The notes under the pieces were generated by a model, which ran no database searches, was not told where the DNA came from, and saw nothing but the letters and a program-made list of their open reading frames with translations. The position numbers and the translations under genes were made by a program. From a virus, in the IMG/VR virus record IMGVR_UViG_3300031951_000268, positions 1 to 48,623 of that record: a stretch of 48,623 nucleotides of DNA, one strand, 5' to 3'. Below are positions 24,334-46,814 of this stretch, piece after piece. Every line of letters starts with the position of its first letter. The stretch's first letter is position 1.

Positions 24334-25455
24334 TTATTCGTTAATGATTTGTGAATCGGGGTCTTCGGATATGGTCATATAATCATAATCAATTAGAAAC
24401 TTTTTTCGAGAATTTTTATATCCGTCATCTCGATTGGCTAATAATTTTAACATATATTCTCGATTGGCGTGCATAATTTCATCTTGAATGATACCAAACA
24501 TGGCATCCACCGTATGCCCCAATCCCGAAGACTCAGAAATATTGGTAATATTTAAATCGGTAGAGCCAAAACCTTGTCTATTGACTTGAGTTGCCGTAAT
24601 AATTGCCCATTCGTTTCGCATCGCCATGGCTCGCAAATCCTCGGCGATTTGTTTAATTTTCATATACATATTCTCACTATTTGGATTTCTCCAATTTTTC
24701 AGAATATTGATATAATCCAACACCACTACTTTAAATTTCATTCCCTTCATTTCCTCCATTTTTCGCAACCACATTTCTATGTCGGGCACACCCGCTGAGG
24801 AGGTGGGGAACTCTTTAATGTACAGCCGACCAGGTGTTTGTAAGTTACTATAACCGATACCCGACAATTTTTTCTTAAGGGCTAATTTATCCCGAGCAAA
24901 ATCCCCATATTCTCGCATACTCACCCCCAACATATTCGCCCCTAAACGTTTGACAACTTTGCGGTCTCGCATTTCTAAGGAGATGACTGCCGTGTTATAA
25001 CCCAACCTAACCGAGTTGGTGGCGACATTGGCTAACCAAATAGAGTTATGACTCAATATGCCATTTGTATAAAAACGTCTATTCTCGTCTGAAAGTTGTA
25101 AATCGTACATATTATCAAAATTGCCTGTTTGGGTAATACAGATTACTTCCTCTAAACCAGATTCGGTTAATATGAAATCACCCTCTTCAAGTTCATTTGT
25201 AAAAATTTCCACATACTGATTCACCCCCAACAAGCATTTATAAACAATATGCGTATCTGCACATTTAAGGGTGTAGTTTTTAGTCCTAATTTCCCAAATT
25301 TCATATTCTACAGTTTTACCCACGGATTTAATATCAACCCACCCACTATCCGTATAAACCTCAAATATTTCAGAGCCATCCCCAAACGTAAATGTTTCTA
25401 CAAATTTTTTGAATGGTCTATCTTCTTCTGTTTTTTGAACAAACCCTATTTGCAT
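24334..25455 (-). CDS. 41: Replicative helicase gp41, C-terminal part with long split-intein C-half
   Basis: 373 aa. Residues 1-137 are an intein C-half: block B with CADTH (65-69), block F MYDLQLSDENRRFYTNGIL and block G ending SHN (137), then Ser138 as the +1 nucleophile. Residues 138-373 are the DnaB-family helicase from just inside Walker A: Walker B VVVLDYINIL, TATQVNRQGF and the ANRDDGYKNSR segment. Because block B lies in the C-half, the intein is split very early (atypical, like the TerL inteins known from metagenomes). Splicing would give GEMKIGKS at the P-loop and a helicase of about 433 aa (T4 475). Confidence 0.92.
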   Translation of the reverse strand: MQIGFVQKTEEDRPFKKFVETFTFGDGSEIFEVYTDSGWVDIKSVGKTVEYEIWEIRTKNYTLKCADTHIVYKCLLGVNQYVEIFTNELEEGDFILTESGLEEVICITQTGNFDNMYDLQLSDENRRFYTNGILSHNSIWLANVATNSVRLGYNTAVISLEMRDRKVVKRLGANMLGVSMREYGDFARDKLALKKKLSGIGYSNLQTPGRLYIKEFPTSSAGVPDIEMWLRKMEEMKGMKFKVVVLDYINILKNWRNPNSENMYMKIKQIAEDLRAMAMRNEWAIITATQVNRQGFGSTDLNITNISESSGLGHTVDAMFGIIQDEIMHANREYMLKLLANRDDGYKNSRKKFLIDYDYMTISEDPDSQIINE

Positions 25456-25521
25456 AATATAGTTTTTAATTTATATGACTAAAAAATTAATTAGTTTTGT
25501 TAATAAAATTTATACAAATTA

Positions 25522-26211
25522 TTAAGGAATGAACCTTTTATGGAAAGCCCCAATTTCTATCTCTTCAACCAAACCCGTTTTTTTATTTCGGATTTTAATT
25601 TTAGTATCAGATGCGGCACACTTTCCAATTTTCATTTCCCCGATAAAACAAAAAAGAGCTTTATTATACCACCCGCCGCCTAAAACTAAGTCAAGATAAG
25701 GGTAGCCCGTAGAGAAAGTATCCGATGTGGGTTGTTCGTGACTATCGGGGTTGAAAAAATCCAAACCCTCATCAAACCCGAATTGGATATTATTTCTATC
25801 AGTGATGATAGATTTGGCGGTTTGGACAACATCTTTGATGTTCTCAGCATTGATTTTGGTGTTTTTCAAGTAGGATATCAAATCCATCACCGAAATATCC
25901 AAATTCTTAAACTCAATCCAAGATTGTACGGTTTCGGTCACCCAATTAGCATCATATTCTGATAGGTGAGTTTCAAAGACCATTTCAATCTTGGGGGCGG
26001 TGAGTTCCTCGCCCAATTCTTGCATTTTAGCTATTTCGATACACTGAGCCGATGTGGGTACTTGGGTGTATTTGTGGGTAAACTCGACGGAAATTTCGTA
26101 CAATTTACGAATATCGGGAGAGTCAAAAAAGCGAGGCTTGACAATATCTAACAGCTCTTTGTTTGCCATCAGATAATGATAAAATATTTTTTCTAAGTGT
26201 GGTGCTGTCAT
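25522..26211 (-). CDS. 41: Replicative helicase gp41, N-terminal part with short split-intein N-half
   Basis: 229 aa from ATG 26211; an upstream TTG is rejected. Residues 1-197 are the DnaB-like N-terminal domain and linker up to Walker A (FIGEMKIGK). Cys198 begins intein block A, CAASDTKIKIRNK, and the protein ends after only 32 intein residues. The matching C-half starts 66 bp downstream, so there is no room for an endonuclease. The first residues are very similar to the terL intein N-half (TKIKI). Functional helicase must be assembled by trans-splicing. Confidence 0.92.
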   Translation of the reverse strand: MTAPHLEKIFYHYLMANKELLDIVKPRFFDSPDIRKLYEISVEFTHKYTQVPTSAQCIEIAKMQELGEELTAPKIEMVFETHLSEYDANWVTETVQSWIEFKNLDISVMDLISYLKNTKINAENIKDVVQTAKSIITDRNNIQFGFDEGLDFFNPDSHEQPTSDTFSTGYPYLDLVLGGGWYNKALFCFIGEMKIGKCAASDTKIKIRNKKTGLVEEIEIGAFHKRFIP

Positions 26212-27765: not shown

Positions 27766-28725
27766 TTAAAAAAGTGCCGTTCGGACAAAAAGTTCTTCGG
27801 GTATGGATGGCATACCCATAGCATTTAAAAATCGGTTAATAGGTTCAACTAAACACTTAGAAAACTGAACATCATAATCCACATCGGGGGCTAATTCCAT
27901 AGGAAAATTCCCTGGCAGATAACCAAAAATATTCTGTTCCATCGACCCCTTAGTTTTTGCATAGTAATATCGAATTTTATCCCCCGATTTAATCAACTCG
28001 TATTTATTTTTCCACTTGGAATTGTGTACTAAATAATTATAGTGTCCAGCTGCTCGAACATGGATGGGGCAGTTCATATTTATTACTAACGCATCTCGGT
28101 CGTTAGCGATACCCTTTTCGTAATCACTAAGACTTGAGGACATGGAAATGGTTTCAATACCCCCCAACATAAACTCCTCTTTCTCTTTCTTGAGGCGTTG
28201 AACAAATTTTTTGAGGTCTAATTTATTCCTTTCTTGGAATAAGATAATAATCAATTCTTTAAGTTTTTTTCGAGCAAAAGCGGGGGTGGAGCTTTGTACA
28301 GTTTCCACACCTTTAGCATCGATTTTACTTTGGGGTTTATAGAAAAGACCATCACCCTTGCCCGTTTTCCAAGCCTTGTCCATCACATATTTTTTCTTTT
28401 TCAAGAAAATTGCCGAATAGGATAAAGTTTCGAACTCCAAATTTTGAATATTGGTCGTTCCCGATTTCTCGGAAAATTTAGCAAAGTTTCTATCTAAGTA
28501 TTCTCGTAACCTTAATTTATAAATTTGATGTATCAGTTTTTGTGGCTCATCCGACCAATCACAGCCATGGACAACCTCTTGGAAGGTTACATAAACAGAA
28601 TTATGAACTAATATATCATTTGCAATAAACGAGTGATTTTCTGGCATTTCAATGTCGTAAACAAACTCATCATCAAAATACCCATCTGGTTCACACGCTG
28701 TAACTTCAACAAATTTTTGATTCAT
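27766..28725 (-). CDS. 43: DNA polymerase gp43, C-terminal piece with split-intein C-half
   Basis: 319 aa. Residues 1-42 are an intein C-half (FVYDIEMPENHSFIANDIL then VHN at 40-42), and Ser43 starts the extein SVYVTFQEV. Residues 43-319 cover the palm after motif C and the thumb, with KKYVMDKAW and VQSSTPAFARKKL matching T4 gp43 (KRYALNVYD, QQSSTPKAVQEAL). Joining to the middle piece at 29864 would rebuild the active-site motif YGDTD-SVYV. Canonical split position (block B on the N-half). Ends MPSIPEELFVRTALF, a possible weak clamp-binding tail. Confidence 0.93.
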   Translation of the reverse strand: MNQKFVEVTACEPDGYFDDEFVYDIEMPENHSFIANDILVHNSVYVTFQEVVHGCDWSDEPQKLIHQIYKLRLREYLDRNFAKFSEKSGTTNIQNLEFETLSYSAIFLKKKKYVMDKAWKTGKGDGLFYKPQSKIDAKGVETVQSSTPAFARKKLKELIIILFQERNKLDLKKFVQRLKKEKEEFMLGGIETISMSSSLSDYEKGIANDRDALVINMNCPIHVRAAGHYNYLVHNSKWKNKYELIKSGDKIRYYYAKTKGSMEQNIFGYLPGNFPMELAPDVDYDVQFSKCLVEPINRFLNAMGMPSIPEELFVRTALF

Positions 28726-29806
28726 TAATAATTTTATTTTTTAGGTTTAAAAAGTTAAATGGTTCTCTAGATTTAGTATGTTCGTATTCCCATACTGTTA
28801 TAATTTGTACGCCTCTTTTGTTTAAAAGTTCTGATTTTTTTTCATTGTCAAGTAACCAAATTTCACTTGCTGATTTATTAACAATTGGTATAATATCAGT
28901 TTCACTGTACAGTAATGGGTTTGCATGGAAAAGGTCACCATTATATTCTACACCAACATTTAATTCCAAAATATAATAATCAATAAAAACATAACGATTA
29001 CCTAAATTAACACCATATTCTTTGTTTTTACCCGCAAAATATGTTGTATATCCATCAAAATGTTTATCTAATTCAGTAAAAAATTTATTTGCTAATTTAG
29101 AATGATATGTTTTCTGTTTTGACCAATACTTTTCATAGTTAATCGTGCCTTCAGTTTCACCGTATTTGAAAATGTAATTTTCAAGTATATGCGCTTTAGA
29201 TTGATTTATAGATTTTGCTGCTTCATAACCAAATTTATTAACCATATATTCAAATGATTTGGTTTTCTTTTGTTTTTGTTTATAATCGTTAAAACGATTG
29301 ATGCCCTCTACTTCTCCATATTTTTTTGTCAAGTTACGTTTTGTTACTGCACGTGATTTATTAAACTCATCAAAATCTGTTTTGGATATACCATACTTGT
29401 TTGATTTATATTCAAAACTATTAGAGTGAGATTGCTTTTTTCTGTATTTGTTCCAATGAATTTCCCAATCAGAACCGTATTTTTCCTTAAACGTTTCAAC
29501 TGTATTTTTTACAAATGAATCCCTTTTTTGTTTATAAATATCATCTTCTATTTGAAAGGCATATTTAGTTATCTCGTTCATCAAGTTGAAAACTCTACCT
29601 TTGTTTTTAAGTTCATATTCTGGGAATTTGTTAGACAGACATTTTTCACAGACTTTTAAAGTATGGCCAGTAGTTTTTGTAGTTAAAGCACTTTTTCCAT
29701 GTAATTTTCCATTAACAATTTTAGTATTATAATAAATAATTTCACCGAAACAAGTAATACACTTAGGTAAGTTTAAGTCTTTAACAAATGATTCAATTTT
29801 TTCCAT
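28706..29806 (-). CDS. Homing endonuclease of the Vsr-like/EDxHD type, lying between split-intein halves of gp43
   Basis: 366 aa. N-terminal zinc finger (Cys16, Cys19, Cys53, Cys56), then DNA-binding repeats around 135-235 (three forms of KYGE.EG..N...Y..KQ), and a C-terminal Vsr-like nuclease with RYVFIDYYI (Asp276), VGVEYNGDLFH (Glu287, Asp291, His294) and GVQIITVWEYE. It fills the gap between the intein N- and C-halves of polymerase and overlaps the gp43 C-piece by 20 bp. It has its own GATATATA box. Very AT-rich compared with its neighbours, indicating recent acquisition. Its target is presumably intein-less gp43. Confidence 0.88.
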   Translation of the reverse strand: MEKIESFVKDLNLPKCITCFGEIIYYNTKIVNGKLHGKSALTTKTTGHTLKVCEKCLSNKFPEYELKNKGRVFNLMNEITKYAFQIEDDIYKQKRDSFVKNTVETFKEKYGSDWEIHWNKYRKKQSHSNSFEYKSNKYGISKTDFDEFNKSRAVTKRNLTKKYGEVEGINRFNDYKQKQKKTKSFEYMVNKFGYEAAKSINQSKAHILENYIFKYGETEGTINYEKYWSKQKTYHSKLANKFFTELDKHFDGYTTYFAGKNKEYGVNLGNRYVFIDYYILELNVGVEYNGDLFHANPLLYSETDIIPIVNKSASEIWLLDNEKKSELLNKRGVQIITVWEYEHTKSREPFNFLNLKNKIINESKIC

Positions 29807-29828
29807 GTGTCTCCATATTTTTTTTATT

Positions 29829-29836
29829 TATATATC
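29829..29836 (-). promoter_or_regulatory. Candidate phage late promoter (GATATATA)
   Basis: Minus-strand GATATATA 23 nt upstream of the homing endonuclease, the same distance as before 44405 and 48561 genes. Suggests late expression of the endonuclease separately from the polymerase piece upstream. Confidence 0.5.
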
Positions 29837-29863
29837 TGTATGGAGATACTAAAAAATTACATT

Positions 29864-30568
29864 TTAACTAATAACCATCACTTTATCACCTGGGATTACT
29901 TCTTTTGCAGTAATAACCATTTTTTCATTGTTTCTCCAAATAATTAATGAATGGTCCCCAGTAACATAAACTATTTTACCATCTGCTGTTGATAATTTAT
30001 ATCTTGGTTTTTTAACTTTATGTCGAAAAACACGAGTTGGTAATCCGTAATACAAGCTGTTCGAAGTTTCATCCCAATTGAGTATTTTATAGTCAATAGT
30101 CACAGATTCGTGCCCATACGGTGTAACTGCTGATTCATGTGTACCTGAATTGAAAATTGATTCAATTGTTAAATCACCAATTTCAGTTCGTATAATTGAA
30201 TCAGCAGCAACAGAATCCGTATCCCCATAAACTGATACATCATTCATAACTCTAGCTACTCGAGTTAAACCCAATTTTTGATGTAGCTCTTTATCTCGAT
30301 GCCAAAACTCTAAAAAATATCGATTCATAATACTCTGAACAAACTTAATTAGTTCTTGACCTTGGAGGGTGATTGCCTCAGCTACTTTAATATTAAAACC
30401 TACAAAGTAAGCGGATGCGGTCGCCCCATAACAACTGTTGATAAAGATTTTAATCGCTTGTTCCTCATTTTTCTTGATGTTCATCAAAGTAGTCAACCTT
30501 TCGATTTCCGCTTTAATATCCTCTCGACTTGCCGAACTTATATCAAGTTTTGAATATTGTAAATCCAT
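29864..30568 (-). CDS. 43: DNA polymerase gp43, middle piece (palm/fingers) with split-intein N-half
   Basis: 234 aa. Residues 1-118 cover the end of the fingers, motif B AIKIFINSCYG (38-48), and motif C up to YGDTD (114-118). Ser119 starts the intein: SVAADSIIRTEIGDLTIES (block A, Ser instead of Cys), with block B VTGDHSLII near 204-211 and an end GDKVMVIS; intein N-half is 116 aa. The start at MDLQYSKLD corresponds to the fingers tip, so this is also the C-side of an older split whose N-side is at 45417-46814. Eleven bases after gp45. Confidence 0.93.
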   Translation of the reverse strand: MDLQYSKLDISSASREDIKAEIERLTTLMNIKKNEEQAIKIFINSCYGATASAYFVGFNIKVAEAITLQGQELIKFVQSIMNRYFLEFWHRDKELHQKLGLTRVARVMNDVSVYGDTDSVAADSIIRTEIGDLTIESIFNSGTHESAVTPYGHESVTIDYKILNWDETSNSLYYGLPTRVFRHKVKKPRYKLSTADGKIVYVTGDHSLIIWRNNEKMVITAKEVIPGDKVMVIS

Positions 30569-45416: not shown

Positions 45417-46814
45417 TTAACTATTTAATTGTTGTTCTAAATATTGAATTTCGGCTTCGATTGCCTCGTATTCTCGCTTAGCTTGTTTTCTTCGATTATA
45501 ATAATCAGTGAGGACTGTCCGTAAAATGGAATCCTCTTTTTTGCTGAAGACCGCCCCCGAGGTGGTGAGGATTTCTTTATCCAAGTCGACCGTTTCACCA
45601 GGTCGTATGTGTCTAAGATAAGAATCGGGCGAGATGTTCCATTGGCGCATAATAAAAGGATATAGGGAGGCAAAGTCCAAAGACCCCACCCATTCATACA
45701 AACCCGCTTTGGGGTCAACTACAAAAGCACCCTCATACTTCCCTTTCTTTTTTTCGATTTTATCCTTTTTCGGTATAACCTTGTTTCGGTTTAAACATTC
45801 TCGGCACATCGCTGCCTCCGCCATATAAATAGGGGAAAAGGCTCGATTGATTTCCACCTTTGTGATATTAGCCAAAGTTAAAAAGGTTTGCATCGTATTG
45901 ATTTTTTCATCTATCAACTCCACCAATTTCGTATCGACTACGTTATAAAAAATGTAAGACTCGAAGTCATTATTGTATAGTTCTTGGAGTGAGCCATCAT
46001 ACTTAACTTTTTGAATCCCTAACACCGAATTGGCTACAAAATCTAAAGTATTATTTTCTTTGATTTCTACCACCTTATCCCATTTTTTGTAAATATCCAA
46101 ATAGTCTAAAACTAAACGGTGCATAGGAAACTCACTCTTACCCACAAGTTTACCCGATAGGGAGGAAGGGCGAGTATCCACTCCTAACTTTTTACAACGG
46201 TTGACTAAATACTGCCAGTCGAATTGAACAAAGTTCCAACCCGTAAGTAAAGGCATTTTTAAAATAGCTTTGTGAAAAAAACTAACCAACATATCATACT
46301 CACTTGAAAATTTCAAATAAGAAAAGGACATTTTCAGACCGTTTAATTGTTTCTCCAAGTGTTGGTTCATCCGCTGCTCAATTCTTTGAATTTGTTGGGC
46401 ACTTAAATCTTTCAGTCCCATACAAATCATTCGCTCCCCTCGACAAAAGGCTATCGCCGTGACGGGATATTTGGCGGTTTCAGCTTTCGGCCACTCTTCC
46501 CCGATTTCTACCTCGATATCCAAAAACCATTTTTTCGGGGTATGATATTCATACAACTCGGCGGTTGTTTCCATAGGCAAGGATTCGATAAATTCAATCA
46601 CTCTAAAATTAGTGATGTATTTAGCCCTCCTTTTCTTCACGGGCTTGTCATCCCAAGATTTCACCTCGGGTTGTGATTTCTCCCCCGAAAGGCAATATTC
46701 CCAATTAAACATTTCCGATTCGGGGATGCGGATATTCTTGAACGAAACCCCACCCTCTTTATTGAAATAAGAAATAGATAATTCCGATTTTTCTTGCTCG
46801 ATATCAATTATCAT
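45417..46814 (-). CDS. 43: DNA polymerase gp43, N-terminal piece (exonuclease and palm, start of fingers)
   Basis: 465 aa. Proofreading motifs: exo I FLDIEVE (Asp99, Glu101), exo II WNFVQFDW (Asn194, Asp199), exo III FYNVVDTKL (Tyr290, Asp294); polymerase motif A SLDFASLYPFIMRQ (Asp380). It ends in the fingers helix YNRRKQAKREYEAIEAEIQY, at the fingers tip. Motifs B and C are in the piece at 29864, 14.8 kb away. Similar two-piece polymerases have been described in T4-like phages; with the intein split the enzyme here comes from three genes. No helicase or clamp motif in this part. Confidence 0.94.
   Translation of the reverse strand: MIIDIEQEKSELSISYFNKEGGVSFKNIRIPESEMFNWEYCLSGEKSQPEVKSWDDKPVKKRRAKYITNFRVIEFIESLPMETTAELYEYHTPKKWFLDIEVEIGEEWPKAETAKYPVTAIAFCRGERMICMGLKDLSAQQIQRIEQRMNQHLEKQLNGLKMSFSYLKFSSEYDMLVSFFHKAILKMPLLTGWNFVQFDWQYLVNRCKKLGVDTRPSSLSGKLVGKSEFPMHRLVLDYLDIYKKWDKVVEIKENNTLDFVANSVLGIQKVKYDGSLQELYNNDFESYIFYNVVDTKLVELIDEKINTMQTFLTLANITKVEINRAFSPIYMAEAAMCRECLNRNKVIPKKDKIEKKKGKYEGAFVVDPKAGLYEWVGSLDFASLYPFIMRQWNISPDSYLRHIRPGETVDLDKEILTTSGAVFSKKEDSILRTVLTDYYNRRKQAKREYEAIEAEIQYLEQQLNS

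What the first reader, a model, noticed from the sequence alone, without database searches (positions are those of the whole stretch)
24334..26211. Helicase gp41 split by an atypically early split intein
The N-half carries only 32 intein residues after GEMKIGK; the C-half carries 137, including block B. The break is in the Walker A of an essential helicase. Only 66 bp separate the halves, so no endonuclease is left. Atypically split inteins with short N-halves are rare and useful for comparison with the TerL-type inteins known from metagenomes.
Basis: partly seen in the sequence, partly recalled or inferred. Interest (0 to 1): 0.82.

Follow-up and report, generated by a model that had tools for sequence, protein, structure and literature searches.

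The report
Phage helicase split by an intein
In this uncultured phage the replicative helicase is encoded as two separate genes, each carrying part of a self-splicing protein (an intein) that should rejoin the two helicase halves, and comparison with relatives shows that a DNA-cutting gene once sat between the halves and has been lost; it is a good new example of a known and, as shown here, common kind of element.

Summary
gp41, the DnaB-like helicase, is encoded as an N-half (25522-26211, minus strand) that ends GEMKIGK plus 32 intein residues, and a C-half (24334-25455) that starts with 137 intein residues ending SHN, followed by Ser+1. The halves are 66 bp apart, with four TAA codons in frame. 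A model of the two intein parts folds as an intein (pLDDT 90) whose best solved match is the atypically split VidaL intein. The split falls after helix 1, as in TerL-type inteins. Close relatives have uninterrupted gp41 with an intact Walker A at the same point. Other relatives have the same split intein with a Vsr-like homing-endonuclease gene between the halves, so this copy is the endonuclease-free form. Both intein halves are under purifying selection and keep the catalytic residues, so trans-splicing is very likely, though not shown. The claim of rarity fails: two short patterns found 242 related loci in viral contigs, and all 50 distinct loci with both halves sit in a Walker A 'GK|' motif of helicases, terminases, clamp loaders, ClpB or gp46. 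I call it a new member of a known kind.

The parts
25522..26211 (-). gp41 N-half gene (229 aa): 197-aa N-extein ending at Walker A ...GEMKIGK, then a 32-aa intein N-fragment
   Evidence: ORF; PHROG 19 DnaB-like helicase 5e-11; aligns over residues 1-198 with uninterrupted gp41 in L005-L019
25525..25620 (-). Intein N-fragment CAASDTKIKIRNKKTGLVEEIEIGAFHKRFIP (32 aa); Cys1 nucleophile; strands 7-12 and 18-22, helix 23-28
   Evidence: N-fragment profile 7e-16; Cys1 invariant in 32 sequences; AF2 pLDDT 95-97
25621..25641 (-). Walker A GEMKIGK; the missing Ser is the first residue after the C-intein
   Evidence: sequence; GEMKIGKS intact in empty allele L019
25456..25521 (.). 66-bp spacer between the halves; three in-frame TAA codons besides the N-half stop; no ORF and no endonuclease remnant found
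24334..25455 (-). gp41 C-half gene (373 aa): 137-aa intein C-fragment, then a 236-aa C-extein starting at Ser+1
   Evidence: ORF; Pfam DnaB_C 1e-13; PHROG 19 2e-41
25045..25455 (-). Intein C-fragment (137 aa), block B His69, block F Asp118, block G ...YTNGILSHN
   Evidence: PDB VidaL 1e-5 / profile 1.6e-11; TIGR01443 intein_Cterm 0.018, 15.3 bits against a cut-off of 15.6; H69, D118, H136, N137 invariant in 39 sequences
24337..25044 (-). C-extein: rest of the gp41 RecA-like domain, starting SIWLANV
   Evidence: 92% identical to the uninterrupted gp41 of L019

Best explanation
The two genes encode precursors that meet after translation. The 32-residue N-fragment (two main strands and helix 1) docks on the 137-residue C-fragment and completes a class 1 intein horseshoe fold. 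Cys1 attacks the Lys-Cys junction, Ser+1 takes over the N-extein by transesterification, Asn137 cyclises, and the exteins are joined as ...GEMKIGK-SIWLANV..., which restores the Walker A motif so that gp41 becomes active. The split intein arrived as a 'fractured gene' element carrying a Vsr-like (EDxHD-type) homing-endonuclease gene between the halves. In this lineage that gene has been deleted, leaving 66 bp, so the copy is no longer self-mobile but must keep splicing because gp41 is presumably essential. Shown: the anatomy, the empty and endonuclease-bearing alleles, selection, and the predicted fold. Inferred: the splicing chemistry, the endonuclease's homing role, and the direction of change (loss).
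For: Anatomy. Removing the intein gives a protein that aligns without gaps to uninterrupted gp41 in close relatives such as L019. Catalytic residues: Cys1 invariant in 32 N-fragments; His69, Asp118, His136 and Asn137 invariant in 39 C-fragments. AF2 model of both fragments: pLDDT 90.4, pTM 0.80, N-fragment 95-97; best PDB match VidaL, E 1.4e-10, TM 0.78. pN/pS against L002 is 0.19 (N-intein) and 0.27 (C-intein) at nearly saturated synonymous change, against 0.07-0.08 for the exteins. The two sister inteins L002 and L025 (starred clade 100/99) have 1.1-1.75 kb with a 362-363 aa endonuclease ORF between the halves. L004 keeps only a 71-aa remnant. L078 and L080 have identical C-inteins, but L080 lacks the 1.45-kb endonuclease stretch. 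There is one gp41 locus per phage record.
Against: No splicing assay exists for this pair. The fold was modelled as one chain through the stop-containing spacer, which favours pairing. Substitution counts are for one pair of sequences and would not show very recent decay. The window is a fragment, so another gp41 outside it cannot be excluded. Gain of the endonuclease in the sisters, rather than loss here, is not formally ruled out.
Confidence: 0.88

Rival explanations
1. The split intein is decayed or inactive, and the two helicase parts work as a non-covalent complex or gp41 activity comes from elsewhere.
For: The only known mobility gene is gone, the intein parts change faster than the exteins, and no splicing data exist.
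Against: The break is inside Walker A, between Lys and Ser, and the intein residues would stay attached there. All catalytic residues are intact and both parts are under purifying selection. One gp41 locus per record.
Confidence: 0.07
2. The gene is one contiguous mini-intein gene, and the stops are sequencing errors or are read through.
For: The halves are in the same frame. Contiguous members of the family exist (L061, L089).
Against: There are four TAA codons in the 23 codons from the N-half stop to the C-half ATG, and TAA is the main stop of the window. Sister loci have the same two-gene break with a whole gene between the halves.
Confidence: 0.02
3. The endonuclease was never present in this lineage; the 66-bp form is ancestral and the sisters gained the endonuclease gene between the halves.
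For: The parsimony count (15 changes of endonuclease state) cannot tell gain from loss.
Against: Both sister inteins, L002 and L025, carry related endonucleases (52% identical) and the window branches beside them. The bases just after the N-half stop resemble those in L002 and L025 (TTTGYATAAATTTT or close to it), as expected if the flanks of the lost gene remain. A remnant form exists (L004).
Confidence: 0.15

Closest known systems
AceL TerL / GOS TerL atypically split inteins (S2 type; PMC13014065)
   Same: Short N-fragment, split after the first alpha helix, large C-fragment; TerL-borne members are in the same sequence family as the window intein
   Different: Host gene is the gp41 helicase; N-fragment 32 aa; Cys1/Ser+1; only weak direct sequence similarity to the engineered Cat consensus (2.8e-5 by profile)
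VidaL atypically split intein (PDB 6vgv/6vgw)
   Same: Best solved match by sequence and by fold; cysteine-dependent, short N-fragment
   Different: VidaL is split earlier, with a 16-aa N-fragment (PMC13014065), whereas this one is split after helix 1 with 32 aa
Canonical gp41-1 / gp41-8 split inteins and 'fractured genes' (Dassa et al. 2009, known here by citation in PMC7090010 and from memory)
   Same: Helicase gp41 broken by a split intein; relatives carry a Vsr-related endonuclease gene between the halves
   Different: gp41-1 is split at the usual endonuclease site; here the split is early and the endonuclease gene is gone. Profile match to gp41-1 3.3e-5
Contiguous TerL inteins of Ackermannviridae phages (Serratia phiMAM1, Dickeya LIMEstone1, Vibrio VP-1)
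   Same: C-part about 38-40% identical to the window's intein, inserted before the same Walker A Ser/Thr position of TerL
   Different: Encoded in one open reading frame, not split

Membership tests
Atypically split intein | Two separate genes whose products each carry part of one intein | tested here: met
   Separate ORFs with stops between
Atypically split intein | Short N-fragment (about 15-37 aa) and long C-fragment | tested here: met
   32 and 137 aa; range from PMC13014065
Atypically split intein | Intein (Hint) fold formed by the two fragments together | tested here: met
   AF2 model pLDDT 90; 56 PDB matches at E <= 0.001, those listed being inteins and other Hint-fold domains, VidaL first; modelled as one read-through chain
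Atypically split intein | Class 1 catalytic residues: nucleophile 1, block B His, block F Asp, terminal His-Asn, nucleophile +1 | tested here: met
   Cys1, His69, Asp118, His136-Asn137, Ser+1; conserved across relatives
Atypically split intein | Protein trans-splicing activity | not testable with these tools
   Needs expression of both halves
S2 (TerL-type) split position | Split directly after helix alpha 1 | tested here: met
   Helix 23-28 in the model, N-fragment ends at 32; definition from PMC13014065
VidaL-type (S1) split position | Split directly after strand beta 2, N-fragment about 16 aa | tested here: not met
   N-fragment runs on through a further strand and alpha 1
Fractured gene with endonuclease | Free-standing endonuclease gene between the halves | tested here: not met
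   Only a 66-bp spacer here; present in sisters L002, L009, L025

The most novel reading that the evidence does not exclude
The window's intein belongs to one large phage family of early-split inteins that, together with one Vsr-like endonuclease family, is dedicated to the Walker A motif of P-loop ATPases in general. It moves between unrelated genes (gp41, TerL, gp44, both Walker A sites of ClpB, gp46) and repeatedly loses the endonuclease, ending as an endonuclease-free split pair or as a re-fused contiguous mini-intein.
Probability: 0.45. Interest if true: 0.6.

Novelty: new member of a known kind. Interest (0 to 1): 0.42.

Why it matters
It is a natural, short-N-fragment, cysteine-dependent split intein that has persisted without its endonuclease, so it is a candidate ligation tool (the 32-residue part is within reach of peptide synthesis). 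It also shows one stage of the homing cycle: empty gene, split intein with endonuclease, remnant, endonuclease-free, re-fused. The wider family, always at Walker A in different ATPases, would allow a direct test of whether these elements move between P-loop genes.

Tried and rejected
A sigma-70 promoter and terminator scan of the region gave counts not clearly above shuffles, and the T4-type late promoter TATAAATA is no more frequent than chance in the window, so no claim is made that the spacer holds a promoter. The 32-aa N-fragment alone finds nothing in the PDB sequences. Holding helicase-borne or TerL-borne inteins as one clade is not rejected (AU p 0.25 and 0.09), so movement between genes is suggestive only. 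The genome-contig scan gave only four relatives, three titled as metagenome-assembled bins and one as an uncultured bacterium; it did not reveal a host. Cross-pairing with the PolB split intein of the same window was considered and thought unlikely, because its fragments are divided at the usual endonuclease site.

Full report
Observation. The window is a 48,623-bp linear IMG/VR virus record. On the minus strand, gene 25522-26211 encodes 229 aa. The first 197 match the N-half of T4-type gp41 helicase and end GEMKIGK; the last 32 are CAASDTKIKIRNKKTGLVEEIEIGAFHKRFIP. After a 66-bp spacer, gene 24334-25455 encodes 373 aa, of which 137 (ending YTNGILSHN) precede SIWLANV and the rest of a DnaB_C domain. 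The two frames are in register but are separated by four TAA codons including the N-half stop; TAA ends 37 of 52 genes in the window.

What it is. The C-fragment, as a small profile, matches solved inteins, best VidaL (1.6e-11), then the Cat consensus and gp41-1. Relatives from viral contigs show invariant Cys1 in N-fragments and invariant His69, Asp118, His136 and Asn137 in C-fragments. To ask whether the two window fragments make one fold, the stretch was read with TAA as Gln (193 aa) and modelled with 76 rows from related loci, most of them separate N- or C-fragments: mean pLDDT 90.4, pTM 0.80, N-fragment 95-97. Foldseek against the PDB gives VidaL first (1.4e-10, TM 0.78), followed by other inteins. 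The N-fragment contains strands at 7-12 and 18-22 and a helix at 23-28, so the split follows helix 1. That is the S2 position reported for AceL and GOS TerL inteins, not the S1 position of VidaL and PolB16; naturally atypical N-fragments are reported as 15-37 aa (PMC13014065; PMC10189870).

Alleles. The same gp41 exists uninterrupted in relatives: L019 is 90-92% identical on both sides and reads GEMKIGKSIWLANV, and L005, L008 and others are uninterrupted as well. L002 (identical in L003; 84-87% identical to the window) has the same split intein with 1.75 kb between the halves, holding a 362-aa ORF and a 171-aa ORF. L009 has a 385-aa ORF there, and L004 a 71-aa remnant. The large ORFs form one BLAST-connected family with a conserved D-F...kiiEFnGDyWH.NP...WE core, weakly similar to Vsr endonuclease (E 0.15 in PDB). 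This resembles the Vsr-related endonucleases of 'fractured genes' (Dassa et al. 2009, known from memory and by citation in PMC7090010; the paper is not held). A profile of this family finds no member near gp41 in the window, only the one in the PolB locus. In the tree of C-fragments the window groups with L002 and L025 (100/99), both endonuclease-bearing. The bases just after the N-half stop resemble those of L002 and L025. A parallel case is direct: L078 and L080 have identical C-fragments and 92-99% identical flanks, but L080 lacks the 1.45-kb endonuclease stretch. Endonuclease state changes at least 15 times on the tree. Loss in the window lineage is therefore the likeliest reading.

Is it functional? 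Against L002, pN/pS is 0.19 in the N-fragment, 0.27 in the C-fragment and 0.07-0.08 in the exteins, with synonymous sites nearly saturated. The intein parts have thus been under constraint for long. Only one gp41 locus is found in each of the 8 records searched, apart from weak matches that fit UvsX. Splicing is inferred, not shown.

The wider family. Contrary to 'rare', two C-fragment patterns found 242 relatives in IMG/VR, of which 80 were fetched. After removing duplicates, and not counting the window, there were 60 distinct C-fragments; 50 had an N-fragment found upstream (29-59 aa, median 35), and in all 50 it follows a Walker A GK. The patterns included no extein residue, although the N-fragment profile was seeded from Walker A members. 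Pfam confirms hosts of the DnaB-type helicase, T4-type terminase, gp44 clamp loader and ClpB kinds; the gp46-type assignment is mine from sequence. Of these 50, 35 have at least 900 bp between the halves, 3 have 368-582 bp, and 12 have under 180 bp. Two members (L061, L089) are contiguous, and in L054, one of the short-gap cases, the endonuclease is fused to the C-fragment. Among isolates, 309 phage records encode a related C-part. In Serratia phiMAM1, Dickeya LIMEstone1 and Vibrio VP-1 it lies within one TerL gene. Vibrio phage vB_VmeM-32 has a distantly related C-fragment on its gp41 C-half, a few residues upstream of the window's site, behind an endonuclease-like gene.

Verdict. A well-preserved, endonuclease-free, S2-type atypically split intein in gp41: a new member of a known kind. 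The more novel reading is that it belongs to a family specialised for Walker A motifs across unrelated ATPases. The tree does not yet prove movement between genes (AU p 0.25 and 0.09).

Noticed in passing
window 27766-30568 (-): DNA polymerase B is broken by a second split intein of the usual type at YGDTD|S with Ser1/Ser+1 (like the cysteine-less PolB split inteins of T4-like phages): N-part in 29864-30568, endonuclease-like gene 28706-29806 still between, C-part in 27766-28725.
   Followed up: partly
window 45417-46814 and 29864-30568 (-): The N-terminal part of PolB (profile positions to about 491) is a separate gene 15 kb away from the part that starts at about 490, with no intein seen at that break, so the polymerase is encoded in three pieces.
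   Followed up: partly
L002 2431-2946; L044 3135-3932; L027 3294-3992; L033 3198-3884: Extra genes lie between the intein halves beside the endonuclease: a DUF4468 protein in L002 and, by eye, a Dam-like adenine methyltransferase in L044. The gap may act as a docking place for cargo genes.
   Followed up: partly
L054 3893-4342 and upstream; L061 3881-4339; L089 3875-4354: Same intein family with the endonuclease fused in frame to the C-fragment (L054), or as a contiguous unsplit mini-intein in TerL (L061, L089).
   Followed up: partly
L007 and L020 5911-6231; L029, L038, L048: Several phage loci carry further intein C-parts close downstream; L029, L038 and L048 appear to have two or more inteins in or near one terminase gene.
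   Followed up: no
L107 (Vibrio phage vB_VmeM-32) 191-742 and 1878-4149: A cultured phage with an unannotated gp41 C-half that starts with a distantly related intein C-part ending HHN|TGKS, an endonuclease-like gene before it, and a RecA-like gene noted with a HintC domain nearby.
   Followed up: partly
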